DNA from: Okeania sp. KiyG1 | GTDB lineage: Bacteria; Cyanobacteriota; Cyanobacteriia; Cyanobacteriales; Microcoleaceae | Direction of reading: 5' to 3' | Assembly: GCF_014132355.1 (NCBI RefSeq) | Contig: NZ_BLZO01000118.1 | Coordinates: forward strand, 1-64,000 | Length of the DNA stretch: 64,000 nt | Part shown: positions 9,669-60,981 of the stretch, in pieces | Position numbering within the stretch: position 1 is the stretch's first letter | Layout of the letters: each line of letters starts with the position of its first letter | Translations under genes and position numbers: made by a program | Notes under the pieces: model-generated | The model's database searches: none | What the model was told of the DNA's origin: nothing | What the model saw: only the letters and a program-made list of their open reading frames with translations

Positions 9669-10349
9669 ATGATTGAAAATTATTCACTCCAGAAATCTAA
9701 TAATATAAGTCAGGTAAAGCAGATGAAATCAGATACTGAAAAAAAACAACAGGTCGAAACCAGATTTGGGCAAATACCATCAATATTGCTGACAACATTA
9801 CTTTCTATAACAGGATTTGGCCTTGGTTATACTGCAGGTGCGATCGCTCAAGAATATCCAGGATGTTTTCTCCTTGATGAATTTGGCAATAGGAGAGATT
9901 TAACGATATCAGTTTGTGGTCTGTTTCCAGAAGAATTACCAGAGGAGGTATCAACTTCAACTGCAACAGCAGGGTTATATGAAATACCAATTAAAAGTCG
10001 TAGCGGTGGTATTCCTGTAATTGATGTTACTTTTAATGCTAATCAAACTTATGAAATGTTGTTAGATACCGGAGCTAGTGGAACATCTATCACTCAGGAA
10101 ATGGCCAACTCCCTGAAAGTTATACCTAATGATCGGGGAACTGTAATAGTTGCTGATGGCAGAAAAATAGAAAAAGAATATGGAATAGTTGCTTCTATTT
10201 CGGCAGGAGGTTTAGAGTTCAAACAATTTAGAGTTGGTATCTTAGCGCCTGAAGCAAAGTTACCATTACTTGGACAAGACTTCTTTGGTAATTATGATAT
10301 TACAGTTAAAGAAAAAGTAGTAGAGTTAAAGGTACGTTCTAGTAGTTAA
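9669..10349 (+). CDS. Membrane-anchored retropepsin-like aspartic protease
   Basis: A 226-residue protein of the clan AA retropepsin-like type. The N-terminal ~35 residues are polar, followed by one hydrophobic segment (SILLTTLLSITGFGLGYTAG, near residues 38-57), either a membrane anchor or late signal peptide. A linker leads to the protease domain from about residue 103: YEIPIK, IPVIDVTFNANQ, the active-site LLDTGASGTSIT, a flap-like region, and LLGQDFFGNYDITV. A single DTG means it must dimerise. A second copy lies immediately downstream. An alternative start at the inner ATG (9724) is possible. Substrates are unknown. Confidence 0.85.
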   Translation: MIENYSLQKSNNISQVKQMKSDTEKKQQVETRFGQIPSILLTTLLSITGFGLGYTAGAIAQEYPGCFLLDEFGNRRDLTISVCGLFPEELPEEVSTSTATAGLYEIPIKSRSGGIPVIDVTFNANQTYEMLLDTGASGTSITQEMANSLKVIPNDRGTVIVADGRKIEKEYGIVASISAGGLEFKQFRVGILAPEAKLPLLGQDFFGNYDITVKEKVVELKVRSSS

Positions 10350-10574
10350 AAGCATCATATTTATAAAAAATTTTATGTGAGGCTCACAGAATAAGGAGTC
10401 AGGAGTGAGGAGAAAATCATGGTGGTCAATTAAGAGTCAATAATTAGGAGTAATATCATGTCCGGTAGCATCGGTATTGTATAGATAAGGTAAGGAAGAA
10501 GGAAGAAGGAAGAACCTTACTTAATATGTAGATATTTCCCTAACTTTTCTTGTAATAAAAATCAGGTAAAGCAA
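10350..10574. other. Intergenic between protease copies, with partial MITE D end
   Basis: Contains tatcatgtccggtagcatcggt near 10454, the left end of the TATCATGTCCG repeat family without a readable right end, and a gaaggaa tract at 10494-10515. Homology to the upstream region of the first copy begins at atcaggtaaagca (10561). Confidence 0.6.
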
Positions 10575-10858
10575 ATGAAATCAGATACTGAAAAAACAAC
10601 AGGTCGAAACCAGATTTGGGCAAATACCATCAATATTGCTGACAACATTACTTTCTATAACAGGATTTGGCCTTGGTTATACTGCAGTTGCGATCGCTCA
10701 AGAATATCCAGGATGTTTTCTGCTTGATGAATTTGGAAATAGGAGAGATTTAACAATATCAGTTTGTGGTCTGTTTCCAGAAGAATTACCAGAAGAAGTA
10801 TCAACTTCGAGTACCGCAGAAGGAATATACGAAATTCCGATTAAAAGTCGTCGGGGTG

Positions 10859-22022: not shown

Positions 22023-22567
22023 AAAAAACTTTACACTCAAGTTGTCAAGAACAATTTTAGATCATTATACTCCAAATTTAGATCATTATACGCCAAATTG
22101 AACCGATCTATTTTTGTACTGGAATCTCCAGAAAGCCAATGGCATATTTGAAATTAATTCAATTAATTCAGTTAGTTCTGCTTTGAGTATTTATACGGTT
22201 GTACTTTTTTCAGTTAGTTCTAATTTGAGTATTTATGCAGTTGTATGTATTTCTTTAGTACAACTTAAGCATTCAGCTATCAGCTATTAACTATGAGTTA
22301 TTAACTCATTGTCTTGGAAGAAGGAATTAGTCTCCAAGGAGAATTAAAAGTTATGAAGAATTATGAAGAAAAAGGTCATCAGCTAACCTAATGAGTTGTT
22401 TTATTGGGCGTTGCTGATGGGTGGCTATGATTTTTCTTTAATGGCGATGTTTAACTATTAACTGAAAAGCATTTGAGATTTTGCCAAATTTAGGTTTCAT
22501 AGCTTAATTCAGTAACGCCCTTTATTCTTTCAAAAACTGTTTGCGCAACATTCCGCAGTAGGGGCGA
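22023..22567. other. Intergenic with two direct-repeat pairs
   Basis: ttagatcattatac occurs twice (22059 and 22078). A ~42-bp unit starting ttcagttagttct and ending gttgta is repeated in tandem at about 22166-22250. A diverged family A MITE spans 22407-22519 (ggcgttgctga to cagtaacgcc). tgtttgcgcaacattccgca at 22543 leads into the 17-bp array. Together they form the upstream region of the broken STAND gene. Confidence 0.6.
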
Positions 22568-32868: not shown

Positions 32869-33137
32869 AATAGCAGTCAGCGGTCAGCGGTCAGCTATTC
32901 CTACGGAATGCTGCGCAAACAGCTTCTAGTTGCGTTTATAATGGGGGATACTCAAGAGAAGCCGCTCCGCGTCTACAAACCCCCATAAAAGGCAAACCAC
33001 GGGCTTTTTCAAATAAGCGTGGGGGACGTCGAACCCTTGGATTTTTAGCTGAAGTCCGTAGTTCCTCTGCAAGAAACTAGCTAAATGCTGGCAAGGGTCC
33101 CATGACTATCACGAAAAGCTAATAGCTAGTTAAGTAG
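32869..33137. repeat. Composite repeat family B, copy 2
   Basis: Begins gcagtcagcggtcagcggtc and ends aagctaatagctagttaagt. Inside are tcctacggaatgctgcgcaa and aataagcgtgggggacgtcg, matching the block at 7955-8175. It separates the TPR lipoprotein from the sugar transferase. Confidence 0.6.
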
Positions 33138-51130: not shown

Positions 51131-51196
51131 GTAAGCATTCAGCCGTCAGCTATCAGCTAATAGCTGTTTGCGCAGCAGTCCGCAGGAAATGCTTAC
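51131..51196. mobile_element. MITE family C, minimal copy, 8-bp TSD
   Basis: 66 bp with ends gtaagcatt and aatgcttac. The direct repeat ataaaata is at 51123-51130 and 51197-51204. It is almost nothing but the two ends plus tgtttgcgcagcagtccgca. It lies 29 bp upstream of the next start codon. Confidence 0.93.
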
Positions 51197-57809: not shown

Positions 57810-59063
57810 TTATTTAGAAGTAAATAATTTAAAGTAAGTATAAACTAAAAATTCTTTGATAGGAATAGCTACAAAAGTAATAGGATTAATTGTGACAATA
57901 ATTGTTCTAACATCTGCTTTTGCTAATTTTACTATCTGTTTTGCTACCCAATCGGCAGACATAATTCCGATGGGATTAAGATTACTTTTAAACGGACCTA
58001 ATATTAGCTTCCGAATGACACAGGGAGCATCTAATCTTCGTAAAGTAACTAAATCTCCAAGAGTTCTTTTTGTGAGTTCATATAGAGGACTAAAAGCTGG
58101 AGAAACTTCTGCTTCTGAAGTGTTAACCCAGACTTCTTTACAAGCAATATCAACATTTGTTCTTACCGTTTTAAGGAATATTTCTAACATTCGCCAGCTA
58201 GAAAAAGTATTAATTTCATAAGATTTAGCGATCGCCTCTGCTGTCTTTTCTCCATGTACATTAATGCCGTGATTTAATACTAAAATATCTACTTTTTCAA
58301 ACAAATCTGCTAAATTATTTTCTTGACTTACTTGCCAATTTATGGTATTTACTTCTAATTCTTTACCATCTATATTTAAGGTAATAGTTTGATTCCCAGA
58401 AGTAAGGGCAATTACTTTTGCACCTGCTTTGTGAAGATGTCGGAGGAGCGATCGCCCTAAACTTCCAGAAGCACCTGTAACAGCAATAGTTTTACCTTTG
58501 AGAGAAAGTGCTGTACCCATAAGTTTATCTACCAGACTCAGAGTGCCGCAAAAGTAAGCATTTTGATTATCGAAGTGGTGACGCCAATGATAAGAGCGGT
58601 TGATAAACCAATGAGCAGGAGGCGCTGAGAATGCACCGGGAAGATGATTTATATCTGTAAGTTGGTCAGCATTAGGAATACCAGTAGCACGAGCGATCGC
58701 CGGAAAAAAGAAACTTAAAGTATAAACAACACCTGCTAAAGTAGCCCAATGATAAGAAGGTATCCAAACAAAAGTTAGTGCCCAGAGTAACAGACTAAAA
58801 GTCAACATGACAAGAGATTCTGGCACATCGTGATACCAAGTAGCTTTTTGATAAATTTCCGTACTGACAGGAGTCAAGTCTGGGCGGAAAACACGATGAT
58901 GCCAACCGTGCCATTTATATAAAGGTGACCAAACATGAGAAACCACATGATAAATATCTCGCACCAGTTCCACAAATAATATAGAACCGAGAACCCAACA
59001 AATGTTTGCTATCCAAGGGTTGACCAGATAAAACTGCTTCATAAAACCGATATAAAACGTCAT
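57810..59063 (-). CDS. Fatty acid hydroxylase/sterol desaturase-like fused to short-chain dehydrogenase
   Basis: 417 residues, a known cyanobacterial two-domain layout. Residues ~1-185: membrane di-iron domain with the histidine boxes HVVSH, HGWHH and HWRHH, plus two membrane pairs (MLTFSLLLWALTFVWI, TLAGVVYTLSFFFPAI). Residues ~190-415: SDR domain with GKTIAVTGASGSLGRSLL (NAD(P) site), LVLNHGI (NAG-like) and the catalytic Tyr/Lys in SPLYELTKR. Both halves have their key residues. Substrate unknown; a lipid oxidised, then reduced or oxidised by the SDR, is likely. The tnpB element ends 20 bp before its ATG, so its natural promoter may be displaced. Confidence 0.92.
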   Translation of the reverse strand: MTFYIGFMKQFYLVNPWIANICWVLGSILFVELVRDIYHVVSHVWSPLYKWHGWHHRVFRPDLTPVSTEIYQKATWYHDVPESLVMLTFSLLLWALTFVWIPSYHWATLAGVVYTLSFFFPAIARATGIPNADQLTDINHLPGAFSAPPAHWFINRSYHWRHHFDNQNAYFCGTLSLVDKLMGTALSLKGKTIAVTGASGSLGRSLLRHLHKAGAKVIALTSGNQTITLNIDGKELEVNTINWQVSQENNLADLFEKVDILVLNHGINVHGEKTAEAIAKSYEINTFSSWRMLEIFLKTVRTNVDIACKEVWVNTSEAEVSPAFSPLYELTKRTLGDLVTLRRLDAPCVIRKLILGPFKSNLNPIGIMSADWVAKQIVKLAKADVRTIIVTINPITFVAIPIKEFLVYTYFKLFTSK

Positions 59064-59083
59064 AATTAGTGATATTTTAATGT

Positions 59084-60337
59084 TTACTTCCTGCTTCTAC
59101 CGGAACTGTCGGCAGCACTCCGTCCACAGGCATCAACGGTCAAGCCGACCGCATCTCTTGAGTGTGTCTTACATTCCGAGGTTTCCTCGGAATTACACAC
59201 TCGCTTTCTTAAATTAATTGAAGCATTCAAGTCTCGGTCAATTGATAAACCGCATTCTGGGCAGTCATAAGTTCTGATGTTTAAAGGCATATCCTGTACA
59301 TGACCACAACTAGAGCAAGTCTTAGAAGATGGAAAAAATCTGTCTACTACTACTAATTCACAGCCGTACCATTGACACTTGTATTCTAGCTGTCTTCTAA
59401 ACTCATAAAAGCACTGTCTACTTATTGATTTGGCTAGTTTATGGTTGGCTAACATACCAGACACATTCAAATCTTCAATCACAACAATGCTGTGGTTCTT
59501 GGCTAAATATGTTGTCAATTTATCAAGTGCATCTTTGCGGATGTTAGCTACTCGTCTATGTTGTTTGGCTAGCTTGACTACAGCTTTGTACCAATTGCTT
59601 GAATGCTTAACTTTCTTACTCAGTTGTCTTTGTAATTTAGCTAGTTTGTTTTGCGCTTTTTTGTAAGGCAAAACACTCTTGAATACTTCACCATTACTTA
59701 GTGTTGCTAATGTCTTAATTCCTAAATCTACACCTACAACTTCTGTAGTTTTATTAGTTGCAGTCGGAGTAAGTTCATAGCTGCAACTTAAATACCAATC
59801 ACCAGCTTGTCTGCTGATAGTTATTTTCTGAGTTGTTGCTTCAATGGGTTCATAAGTTTTCACAATACCAATAAAAGGTAATTTGTGACTCCATCCGTTT
59901 AGTTCTATTGGTTTTCCACAATTATCTATTGTGTTTGCGTAGCATTCCGTAGGAAATGAATCAGACCTACCTTTCTTCTTAAACCGTGGGCGTTTACCTA
60001 GACCTTGTTTGCGCAGCATTCCGCAGGAAAAGAACCTCTTAAATGCTTCACCCAAGTTAATAAAAGCATATTGATAAACTTTAGATGAGAGGTTTTTCAT
60101 CCAGGGGTAGAGGGGTTTGGTGTGATTAGTAAAAACCTCTCTGAGTTTACGTTTGCGCAGCATTCCGTTTGCGTAGCATTCCGAAGGAAAGGAAGGGTTG
60201 GGCTTGTAACCATCTGTGTAAGCATCATTCCATAAACTTAAACCCCAGTTATAGCACCATCGAGAGTAGCCCGCGTGTTGAGCAAAGAACGTTTTCTGCT
60301 TATTATTTAATTTGAGTTTAGTTCTAATGGATTTCAT
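59084..60337 (-). CDS. TnpB-family RNA-guided nuclease carrying in-frame 21-bp insertions
   Basis: 417 residues of standard TnpB. Catalytic residues: VVGVDLGIKTLATLS (Asp), VVIEDLNVSGM (Glu), DRDLNASINL (Asp). Zinc finger CSSCGHVQ...YDCPECG. The N-terminal part holds foreign peptides: FPSECYANGMLRKR near residue 50, SCGMLRK near 108 and PTECYAN near 130, all translated from the dispersed palindrome gtttgcgnagcattccgnag. Without them the text reads as a normal TnpB (GRSDSF-TIDNCGKPIE, KRFF-QGLGKRPRF). Inserts keep the frame. No tnpA is next to it. Activity with three extra loops in the recognition part is uncertain. Confidence 0.92.
   Translation of the reverse strand: MKSIRTKLKLNNKQKTFFAQHAGYSRWCYNWGLSLWNDAYTDGYKPNPSFPSECYANGMLRKRKLREVFTNHTKPLYPWMKNLSSKVYQYAFINLGEAFKRFFSCGMLRKQGLGKRPRFKKKGRSDSFPTECYANTIDNCGKPIELNGWSHKLPFIGIVKTYEPIEATTQKITISRQAGDWYLSCSYELTPTATNKTTEVVGVDLGIKTLATLSNGEVFKSVLPYKKAQNKLAKLQRQLSKKVKHSSNWYKAVVKLAKQHRRVANIRKDALDKLTTYLAKNHSIVVIEDLNVSGMLANHKLAKSISRQCFYEFRRQLEYKCQWYGCELVVVDRFFPSSKTCSSCGHVQDMPLNIRTYDCPECGLSIDRDLNASINLRKRVCNSEETSECKTHSRDAVGLTVDACGRSAADSSGRSRK
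59936..60188. repeat. Four copies of a 21-24-bp palindromic element inside tnpB
   Basis: Copies on the plus strand: gtttgcgtagcattccgtag at 59937, gtttgcgcagcattccgcag at 60009, and a back-to-back pair gtttgcgcagcattcc / gtttgcgtagcattccgaag at 60151-60187. The core tgcg...cgca pairs around an eight-base loop. Other copies in the window: 1585, 8127, 22543, 32901 (reverse), 51168. Confidence 0.9.
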
Positions 60338-60981
60338 ATATGGGTGAGTGCAACCTGTCTAAAAGTATGCTTCAGGGCGTATTATATCATTACTCTTTGA
60401 TTAAGTCAATGCTCCATAAACCTCACTATCAAATATGTTATACAAATATACTTTAAACTAATACTAGAAGTATTGCTTTTCTGACAGGAAGTCTAAAATT
60501 ATATCATGTCCGGTTGAATAGTTATAAAAAGCGACGGAGGAGTCAGGAGTCAGCAGAGAAGAAAGAAGAAGGAAGAATGAGGAATTTTTTTTCATAAAAA
60601 AAGCACTACGTCTTTTGGTTAAAACAATTATTTAGTTGTAAGGTAACAGGGAACAGGGAGAAATAATTGATAATTTTTTGATTTTTGATTATCACGCCTA
60701 TGTCTATTTAGCCGGACATAATACTATAGGAGTCTAAGGAAAGAGCGCGGACAGATCAAAAGCTGAAAACTCAGAGGTTGTTTGTAAAGAATTATGAAGT
60801 GTTTTGACTACTCGCAAATTGAGTATTTTAGCCTATAAAGTCTGGCATAAATAACTAAGTTGTTACAGTTTAAAGGGCTATCATTGTACATTACAAAACT
60901 TTACAAACAGTCTCTCAGACAAGGTAAGATTTTTCCTTCTTCCCTCTTCCCTCTTCCCTCTTCCTTCTTCCTTCTGCTATA
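60338..60981. other. Intergenic upstream of tnpB, behind mrdA
   Basis: A diverged family D-like block runs from tatcatgtccggttgaatag (60503) to ctatttagccggacataata (about 60725) without an exact duplication. gaagaaggaag tracts occur at 60557-60575 and, inverted, 60938-60975 behind mrdA. No gene. Confidence 0.55.

What the first reader, a model, noticed from the sequence alone, without database searches (positions are those of the whole stretch)
59084..60337. Palindromic 21-bp element inserted in frame several times in a tnpB gene
Three sites in tnpB contain translations of the dispersed gtttgcgnagcattccgnag palindrome (PTECYAN, SCGMLRK, and a double copy PSECYANGMLRK). Removing each 21-bp piece restores ordinary TnpB text. 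The element is 7 codons and stop-free in this orientation, so the frame survives. This is like the Rickettsia palindromic elements that insert in coding genes, and I know of no description of it for TnpB.
Basis: partly seen in the sequence, partly recalled or inferred. Interest (0 to 1): 0.82.

Follow-up and report, generated by a model that had tools for sequence, protein, structure and literature searches.

The report
21-bp mobile repeat inside tnpB genes
A 21-letter mobile DNA repeat of marine cyanobacteria has inserted itself several times into a transposon gene (tnpB) without breaking its reading frame, and a sister species still has two of the three sites empty.

Summary
The window's tnpB (59084-60337, minus strand) carries four copies of a 21-bp element, TTTGCGNAGCATTCCGNAGGA, at three sites; at one site a copy sits inside another copy. 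The genome (Okeania-like) has 695 copies at up to 2 mismatches and none of the reversed control. An orthologous tnpB at the same genomic place in one congener lacks exactly 42 bp at site 1 and 21 bp at site 3. Paralogues show exact empty sites, and Okeania hirsuta has site 1 with a single, un-nested copy. Insertion is usually at YG^AA, with no target duplication seen. In a sample not chosen for tnpB, 11 of 101 copies lie in tnpB. Of 34 copies in tnpB, 28 have the always-open orientation; five reversed ones lie at the 3' end, one in a doubtful remnant. The element reads as two tandem d(GNA) mini-hairpins: 126 tandem GNA/GNA pairs against 2 in a Markov control. It behaves like a cyanobacterial small dispersed repeat, a new member as far as could be checked, and is not a Rickettsia palindromic element. 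How it moves is inferred.

The parts
59084..60337 (-). tnpB, 417 aa, RNA-guided endonuclease TnpB family; host gene of the inserts
   Evidence: D204, E288, D369 and four zinc-ribbon cysteines invariant in the alignment (their role as RuvC and zinc residues is recalled)
59036..60411 (.). approximate extent of the tnpB-only insertion sequence (joining point of the empty site in congeners)
   Evidence: L287 matches the window to 59035 and resumes at 60412 at adjacent locus positions; L284 and L286 likewise with 2 bases of overlap, L285 with about 9; ends uncertain by a few bases
60152..60193 (+). site 1: 42-bp nested pair, aa 49-62; outer copy 60152-60167 plus 60189-60193
   Evidence: exact 42-bp gap in the orthologue L283; single copy in Okeania hirsuta L168
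60168..60188 (+). site 1: inner copy TTTGCGTAGCATTCCGAAGGA, inserted at CCG^AAGGA of the outer copy
60008..60028 (+). site 2: copy TTTGCGCAGCATTCCGCAGGA, aa 104-110
   Evidence: the orthologue L283 is filled here too, but both loop bases differ (A,A against C,C)
59934..59954 (+). site 3: copy TTTGCGTAGCATTCCGTAGGA, aa 128-135
   Evidence: exact 21-bp gap in L283
1586..1606 (+). dispersed copy outside tnpB
22540..22560 (+). dispersed copy outside tnpB (2 mismatches)
32899..32919 (-). dispersed copy outside tnpB
51167..51187 (+). dispersed copy outside tnpB (1 mismatch)
59154..59204 (.). a different 51-bp inverted-repeat block, also in frame, near the 3' end of tnpB; shared with paralogue L009

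Best explanation
The pieces are copies of a 21-bp mobile dispersed repeat (of the cyanobacterial small-dispersed-repeat kind) that inserts precisely, usually at YG^AA, without target duplication, also into its own copies. Shown: dispersed copies by the hundred in each of six congeneric genomes, nesting, exact empty sites in paralogues and in one orthologous locus. Because the unit is 21 bp and has no stop in any frame when its TCCTNCGG strand is the coding strand, it adds seven residues and leaves the gene open. Inferred: copies persist in tnpB because it is a multi-copy transposon gene that accepts seven extra residues at some positions, and the surviving orientation is set by selection on the reading frame. 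Inferred with less weight: the mobile form is single-stranded DNA of the TTTGCG strand, folded into two tandem d(GNA) mini-hairpins that an enzyme acting in trans recognises.
For: 695 copies against 0 for the reversed pattern; 6 of 6 congeneric genomes have 175 to 435 exact copies. In 17 paralogous tnpB stretches site 3 is filled in 6, site 2 in 2, site 1 in 1, and one further site in L016 only; the remaining rows have the exact empty site. Orthologous locus with exact 42- and 21-bp gaps. Single copy at site 1 in L168, with the same loop bases as the window's outer copy. Flanks of 114 copies: -2 T .86/C .14, -1 G .92, +1 A .97, +2 A .91. An automatic search (75% identity or more, repeats included) finds an ungapped empty-site match for 85 of 335 copies with usable flanks. 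A non-tnpB case: an in-frame 21-bp copy in a polyketide-synthase-like gene (L139 and the identical L304, perhaps one genome), with the exact empty site in L305, L306 and L307. Structure: loop G and A nearly fixed (positions 6, 8, 16, 18.95, 1.00.92, 1.00) while the middle base is free; 126 tandem GNA/GNA pairs against 2 in a Markov control, 13 once this family is removed; 64 copies of a sister pattern with the outer pair of stem 1 swapped, 0 in the control. GNA loops closed by at least two G-C pairs make very stable DNA mini-hairpins for any N (PMC4686876, passage).
Against: Folding energies of the element are not unusual against shuffles (z from -1.45 to 0.00), and the C-loop variant is predicted to prefer another 4-bp pairing; standard parameters may not credit GNA loops. 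Covariation among near copies is modest: T13-A21 to C13-G21 in 17 of 202, T3-A11 to A-T in 6 of 202, with many non-pairs. No enzyme was linked: no copy within 3 kb of the 2 Y1-transposase-like genes checked, of 24 matches. Some targets depart from YG^AA (site 1 is CG^AG, another is GG^AA). Precise loss in the single orthologue, rather than gain in the window, is not excluded. That the protein still works was not shown, and the G247 orthologue has a frame-shifting difference.
Confidence: 0.86

Rival explanations
1. The copies at homologous tnpB codons did not insert one by one: an early insertion was spread among paralogues by gene conversion or by duplication of the insertion sequence.
For: Loop bases at the same tnpB site agree more often (difference 0.167 per loop base; 21 copies, one partner each, reciprocal pairs included) than random pairs would (about 0.54, worked out by hand from the frequencies). 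Site 3 has loops T,T in five of six filled paralogues.
Against: In the same 21 comparisons the flanks differ by 13.2% and the 19 core positions by 0, so the copies are younger than the flanks. In the two 60-column blocks that hold site 1 the window is 100% identical to its empty orthologue and at most 96% to any other row; in the two that hold site 3 it is 96 and 100% identical to the orthologue and 86-95% to the five filled paralogues. Long conversion tracts are unlikely; short ones are not excluded.
Confidence: 0.35
2. The element moves through RNA (as recalled for the Nostoc repeats), inserting into transcripts in one orientation, which would explain the prevailing orientation inside tnpB.
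For: 28 of 34 copies in tnpB have the TCCTNCGG strand as coding strand, although YGAA targets are more common in the other direction (470 against 252; stop-weighted chance of this orientation 0.34). The in-frame copy in the polyketide-like gene has the same orientation. Within 150 bases after a gene the split is 12 against 6 the same way.
Against: Between tandem genes the split is 43 against 31, near even. Five copies at the 3' ends of tnpB intervals (relative position 0.91-0.99) lie the other way, as does one in a doubtful remnant and one in a 104-aa tnpB remnant (C94 102902) outside the intervals. So the bias looks like selection on coding rather than an insertion rule.
Confidence: 0.2
3. 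The peptides are ancestral TnpB segments kept in some lineages and lost in others.
For: Only that some paralogues share a site.
Against: The same 21 bp occurs 695 times in the genome, in the samples mostly outside long open frames; unrelated TnpB subfamilies carry it at other codons; the other TnpB subfamilies aligned lack these peptides.
Confidence: 0.01

Closest known systems
Small dispersed repeats (SDR) of Nostoc and relatives (Elhai et al. 2008, Genome Res 18:1484; not held; recalled, and seen cited in PMC4390886 and PMC3116915)
   Same: Size (recalled 21-27 nt), dispersed in a filamentous cyanobacterium, precise insertion into a defined target (SDR5 inserts between nucleotides 3 and 4 of HIP1: PMC4390886 passage), copies within copies (recalled), one predicted structure shared by different sequences (recalled)
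   Different: Other genus (Okeania); target usually YG^AA; published consensus sequences could not be read for comparison; in-frame residence in tnpB
Rickettsia palindromic elements (RPE)
   Same: In-frame insertion into protein genes
   Different: About 150 bp against 21 bp (PMC10969869 passage); other phylum
REP/REPIN elements with RAYT transposases
   Same: Short (20-40 bp) palindromic repeats in high copy number (PMC3733652 abstract)
   Different: Extragenic by name and tagged GTAG or CGTC at one end (title and abstract); no copy near a Y1-like gene in the two cases checked
IS200/IS605-type tnpB elements (host of the inserts)
   Same: The host gene is an ordinary TnpB
   Different: The 21-bp element is not part of the insertion sequence: most paralogues lack it at any given site

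Membership tests
Cyanobacterial small dispersed repeats (SDR) | Unit of about 21-27 nt, many dispersed copies (size recalled) | tested here: met
   21 bp, 695 copies at up to 2 mismatches, control 0
Cyanobacterial small dispersed repeats (SDR) | Precise insertion into a recognisable target, empty sites available | tested here: met
Cyanobacterial small dispersed repeats (SDR) | Nested copies (recalled) | tested here: met
   site 1, and its un-nested state in L168
Cyanobacterial small dispersed repeats (SDR) | Sequence identity with a published SDR family | not testable with these tools
   paper not held
Cyanobacterial small dispersed repeats (SDR) | Occurs in the Nostoc-type group (recalled) | tested here: inconclusive
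   exact pattern in 1 of 244 genomes of the phylum draw, the own one.
Rickettsia palindromic elements | Unit of about 150 bp, in Rickettsia | tested here: not met
   21 bp, cyanobacterium
Rickettsia palindromic elements | In-frame insertion in protein genes | tested here: met
MITE | Target-site duplication and terminal inverted repeats | tested here: not met
   exact 21- and 42-bp gaps with no duplicated target; ends TTTG and AGGA are not inverted repeats of each other
REP/RAYT | GTAG or CGTC tag at one end and a neighbouring Y1-like transposase | tested here: not met
   no such tag at either end of the unit; no copy within 3 kb of the 2 Y1 matches checked, of 24
TnpB (host gene) | OrfB_IS605 and zinc-ribbon domains, catalytic residues, TnpB fold | tested here: met
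   (Foldseek 8h1j, TMq 0.72)

The most novel reading that the evidence does not exclude
A class of 20-21-nt mobile DNAs built as two tandem d(GNA) mini-hairpins moves as single-stranded DNA by an unidentified enzyme acting in trans, and re-inserts at the same preferred codons again and again. Homologous copies therefore keep a nearly invariant core and turn over mainly their loop bases while the surrounding gene diverges, and TnpB genes are one of its main coding landing places.
Probability: 0.25. Interest if true: 0.75.

Novelty: new member of a known kind. Interest (0 to 1): 0.52.

Why it matters
It gives a clean example of mobile DNA small enough to add seven residues to a protein without breaking the frame, with empty, single and nested stages all found in living relatives. 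It makes two open questions testable: what moves such tiny repeats (the GNA mini-hairpin pattern points to single-stranded DNA), and whether RNA-guided TnpB nucleases keep working with several seven-residue inserts. For annotation it warns that peptides such as SxGMLRK, PxECxAN and LRNAxQT in proteins of Okeania may be repeat DNA.

Tried and rejected
One search used reference proteins contaminated by flanking genes and is replaced. One search read aligned rows in place of loci for most paralogues and is replaced. One search counted some held duplicates of the same stretch as pairs and is replaced. The first polyketide-gene alignment used wrong coordinates and is replaced. print chances for 13 distinct tnpB sites; on re-reading I count 11, so the figures become about 8e-6 (at 0.34) and 5e-4 (at 0.5), worked out by hand. 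L183, an exact pattern match in what reads as a TPR protein, is taken as chance. RNA-level insertion as the cause of the orientation bias was considered and set aside. A link to Y1/RAYT transposases was sought and not found. As a yardstick I counted matches of other mobile genes (DDE_Tnp_1 51, DDE_3 14, RVT_1 36). None of the in-frame copies looked to me like one of those families, but I ran no domain search on those frames, and two frames (C85 53796, L156) read to me like IS1 InsA and hold a copy each. So enrichment in tnpB against other transposase genes is not proved. Literature: searches were search listings with starts of abstracts; passages were read in PMC4390886, PMC3116915, PMC3733652, PMC10969869 and PMC4686876.

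Full report
What is there. The window's tnpB is one open frame of 417 codons at 59084-60337 on the minus strand. It has TnpB domains; D204, E288, D369 and four cysteines are invariant in the alignment (their roles are recalled), and its model matches ISDra2 TnpB (8h1j, TMq 0.72). Inside it lie four copies of TTTGCGNAGCATTCCGNAGGA (written on the + strand): site 3 at 59934-59954, site 2 at 60008-60028, and at 60152-60193 a 42-bp block in which one copy has inserted into another. The inner copy entered at CCG^AAGGA of the outer, a YG^AA target.

Chance. The 21-mer has 695 matches at up to 2 mismatches in the 10.98-Mb genome and none when read backwards. Exact copies number 435 there and 175 to 410 in each of five congeners. 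The exact pattern is absent from the 243 other genomes of a draw across the phylum, which held no other congener. The longest DNA matches between these loci and the window's genome run from 88 to 95% identity with Okeania records (L123, L108, L157, L110, L121), so I call the genome Okeania-like.

Empty sites. Seventeen tnpB stretches of the same genome were aligned (four of them partial). Site 3 is filled in 6 of 17, site 2 in 2, site 1 in 1, and L016 has one more site; the rest have the exact uninterrupted sequence. The best case is the orthologous locus. In congener G247 the same tnpB element sits at the same place (92.6% over 2,748 bp). It lacks exactly the 42 bp of site 1 and the 21 bp of site 3 and has site 2 filled, with both loop bases different (gaps confirmed). 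Four other congeners lack this tnpB there: their sequence joins at about 59035/60412, so the element is a tnpB-only insertion sequence of about 1.4 kb. One of the four, L285, has a diverged tnpB-like stretch (66% over 453 bp) about 0.6 kb beyond the joint. In Okeania hirsuta (L168) a related tnpB has site 1 with a single copy whose loop bases equal the window's outer copy, as the stage before nesting should look; a second record, L165, also pairs with it at that site. In the two 60-column blocks holding site 1 the window is 100% identical to the empty orthologue and at most 96% to any other row. The block thus arrived in an otherwise unchanged gene, unless G247 lost it precisely.

Beyond this gene. 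Three samples were read. A: 1.598 Mb of nine contigs picked because one search showed tnpB there (114 copies). B: 60 regions around the exact copies listed on C3-C48 except C25, not picked for tnpB (101 copies). C: the 93 loci (128 copies). Open frames of 100 codons or more contain 21 of 114, 16 of 101 and 21 of 128; many of those frames are not convincing genes. Inside tnpB-like DNA lie 12 of 114, 11 of 101 and 11 of 128; one of the 12 is in a doubtful 218-bp remnant. With tnpB at 3.2% of sample A, 11 of 101 has a chance of 0.0004, taking copies as independent, which paralogues are not. A host gene is hit too: a polyketide-synthase-like gene with a phosphopantetheinyl-transferase-like end (label from my reading, no domain search) carries an in-frame copy in L139 and the identical L304, with the exact empty site in L305, L306 and L307. 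An automatic search found an ungapped empty-site match for 85 of 335 copies with usable flanks; it accepts 75% identity and flanks that are themselves repeated, so not every one is a proven empty allele.

Target and orientation. In sample A the flanks read -2 T .86/C .14, -1 G .92, then +1 A .97, +2 A .91. Many copies sit inside another small repeat (CTG^AATGCTTAC), so the sites are not independent, and some targets differ (site 1 is CG^AG). The gaps checked base by base are 21 or 42 bp with no duplicated target. Of 34 copies in tnpB, 28 have the TCCTNCGG strand as coding strand, at relative positions 0.13-0.85. The other six are reversed: five at 0.91-0.99 and the doubtful remnant at 0.85. 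A seventh reversed copy sits in a 104-aa tnpB remnant that one search missed. Target sites would favour the reverse (470 against 252). Allowing for stop codons made by the loop bases, the expected share of the observed orientation is 0.34; for 11 distinct positions that is about 8e-6 by hand, or 5e-4 if only always-open frames are allowed. Between tandem genes the split is 43 against 31, and just after genes 12 against 6, both leaning the same way but weakly. I therefore read the strong bias as selection on the reading frame, with less than certainty.

Effect on the protein. The internal stretches of the model below pLDDT 50, residues 106-113 and 131-142, overlap inserts 2 (104-110, at the end of a helix) and 3 (128-135); insert 1 (49-62) lies in blocks of about 60 (mean pLDDT 75, 16 sequences, so only indicative). 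dN/dS between this tnpB and nine paralogues, some of them broken copies, is 0.08-0.16. The family is under purifying selection, but this is mostly older than the inserts and does not show that the window's copy works. The G247 orthologue carries a one-base length difference within the frame.

Structure. On the TTTGCG strand the unit reads TT-TGC-GNA-GCA-T-TCC-GNA-GGA. The loop G and A are nearly fixed and the middle base is free. That is the rule for extraordinarily stable DNA mini-hairpins: a GNA loop, N any base, at least two G-C pairs (PMC4686876, passage). In sample A, tandem hairpins with GNA/GNA loops occur 126 times (2 in a Markov control) and 13 times after removal of this family, no more than the commonest other loop pair, 14. 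A sister family with the outer pair of stem 1 turned from T-A to A-T has 64 copies and 0 controls. Against this, computed folding energies are ordinary and covariation among near copies is modest. I take the mini-hairpin form as likely, and its role in single-stranded DNA transposition as a guess.

Age of copies. Where homologous sites are both filled, the core differs less than the flanks. With one partner per copy and flanks at least 3% apart, 50 copies give flanks 12.5%, core 3.6% (0 differences in 39 of 50), loops 24%. For the 21 of them in tnpB the figures are 13.2%, 0 and 16.7% (reciprocal pairs included, partner elements not filtered, query elements at most 2 mismatches). Where flanks differ by under 3%, core and loops differ alike (2.5 and 2.4%, 21 pairs). 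Copies at the same tnpB codon are thus younger than the split of the genes, through repeated insertion, short conversion tracts or both.

What it is. By behaviour it is a small dispersed repeat of the cyanobacterial kind (Elhai et al. 2008, recalled; paper not held), a new member as far as I can tell, in a setting I found no description of: in-frame residence in tnpB. It is not a Rickettsia palindromic element (size and taxon fail), not a classical MITE (no target duplication) and not shown to be a REP. The only literature search with TnpB as a term found 0 papers; the others were on the repeats.

Noticed in passing
window 59154-59204: A second, different inverted-repeat block of 51 bp also lies in frame near the 3' end of the same tnpB, shared with paralogue L009; other paralogues carry a 24-bp palindromic block or a 30-bp block elsewhere in the gene.
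   Followed up: partly
window 60008-60028 and L283: At site 2 the window and its orthologue are both filled, the 19 core bases are identical and both loop bases differ.
   Followed up: partly
L139:4884-4932, L304-L307: Next to the in-frame copy in the polyketide-like gene, L139 and L304 have a full element where orthologues have a similar text (TTTCCTAGGTCATGCTCCGCAAACAG or near it): conversion, or an old decayed copy.
   Followed up: no
window 1586, 51167 and many tiles: Many copies lie at CTG^AATGCTTAC inside another dispersed small repeat.
   Followed up: no
window 22540 onward: A copy lies at the start of a 378-codon frame made of many NGIRPQMAFALKWHSPS-type repeats.
   Followed up: no
own genome, 64 places: A sister family AGC-GNA-GCT-NN-TCC-GNA-GGA, 36 and 28 copies on the two strands, one of them inside a tnpB match region (C53:62407).
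   Followed up: partly
L047, about 10162-10722 on the strand listed (C91): Three copy-like elements TTTGTGCAGCATTCCCTAGGA with identical near flanks 260-280 bp apart, a tandem repeat containing the element.
   Followed up: no
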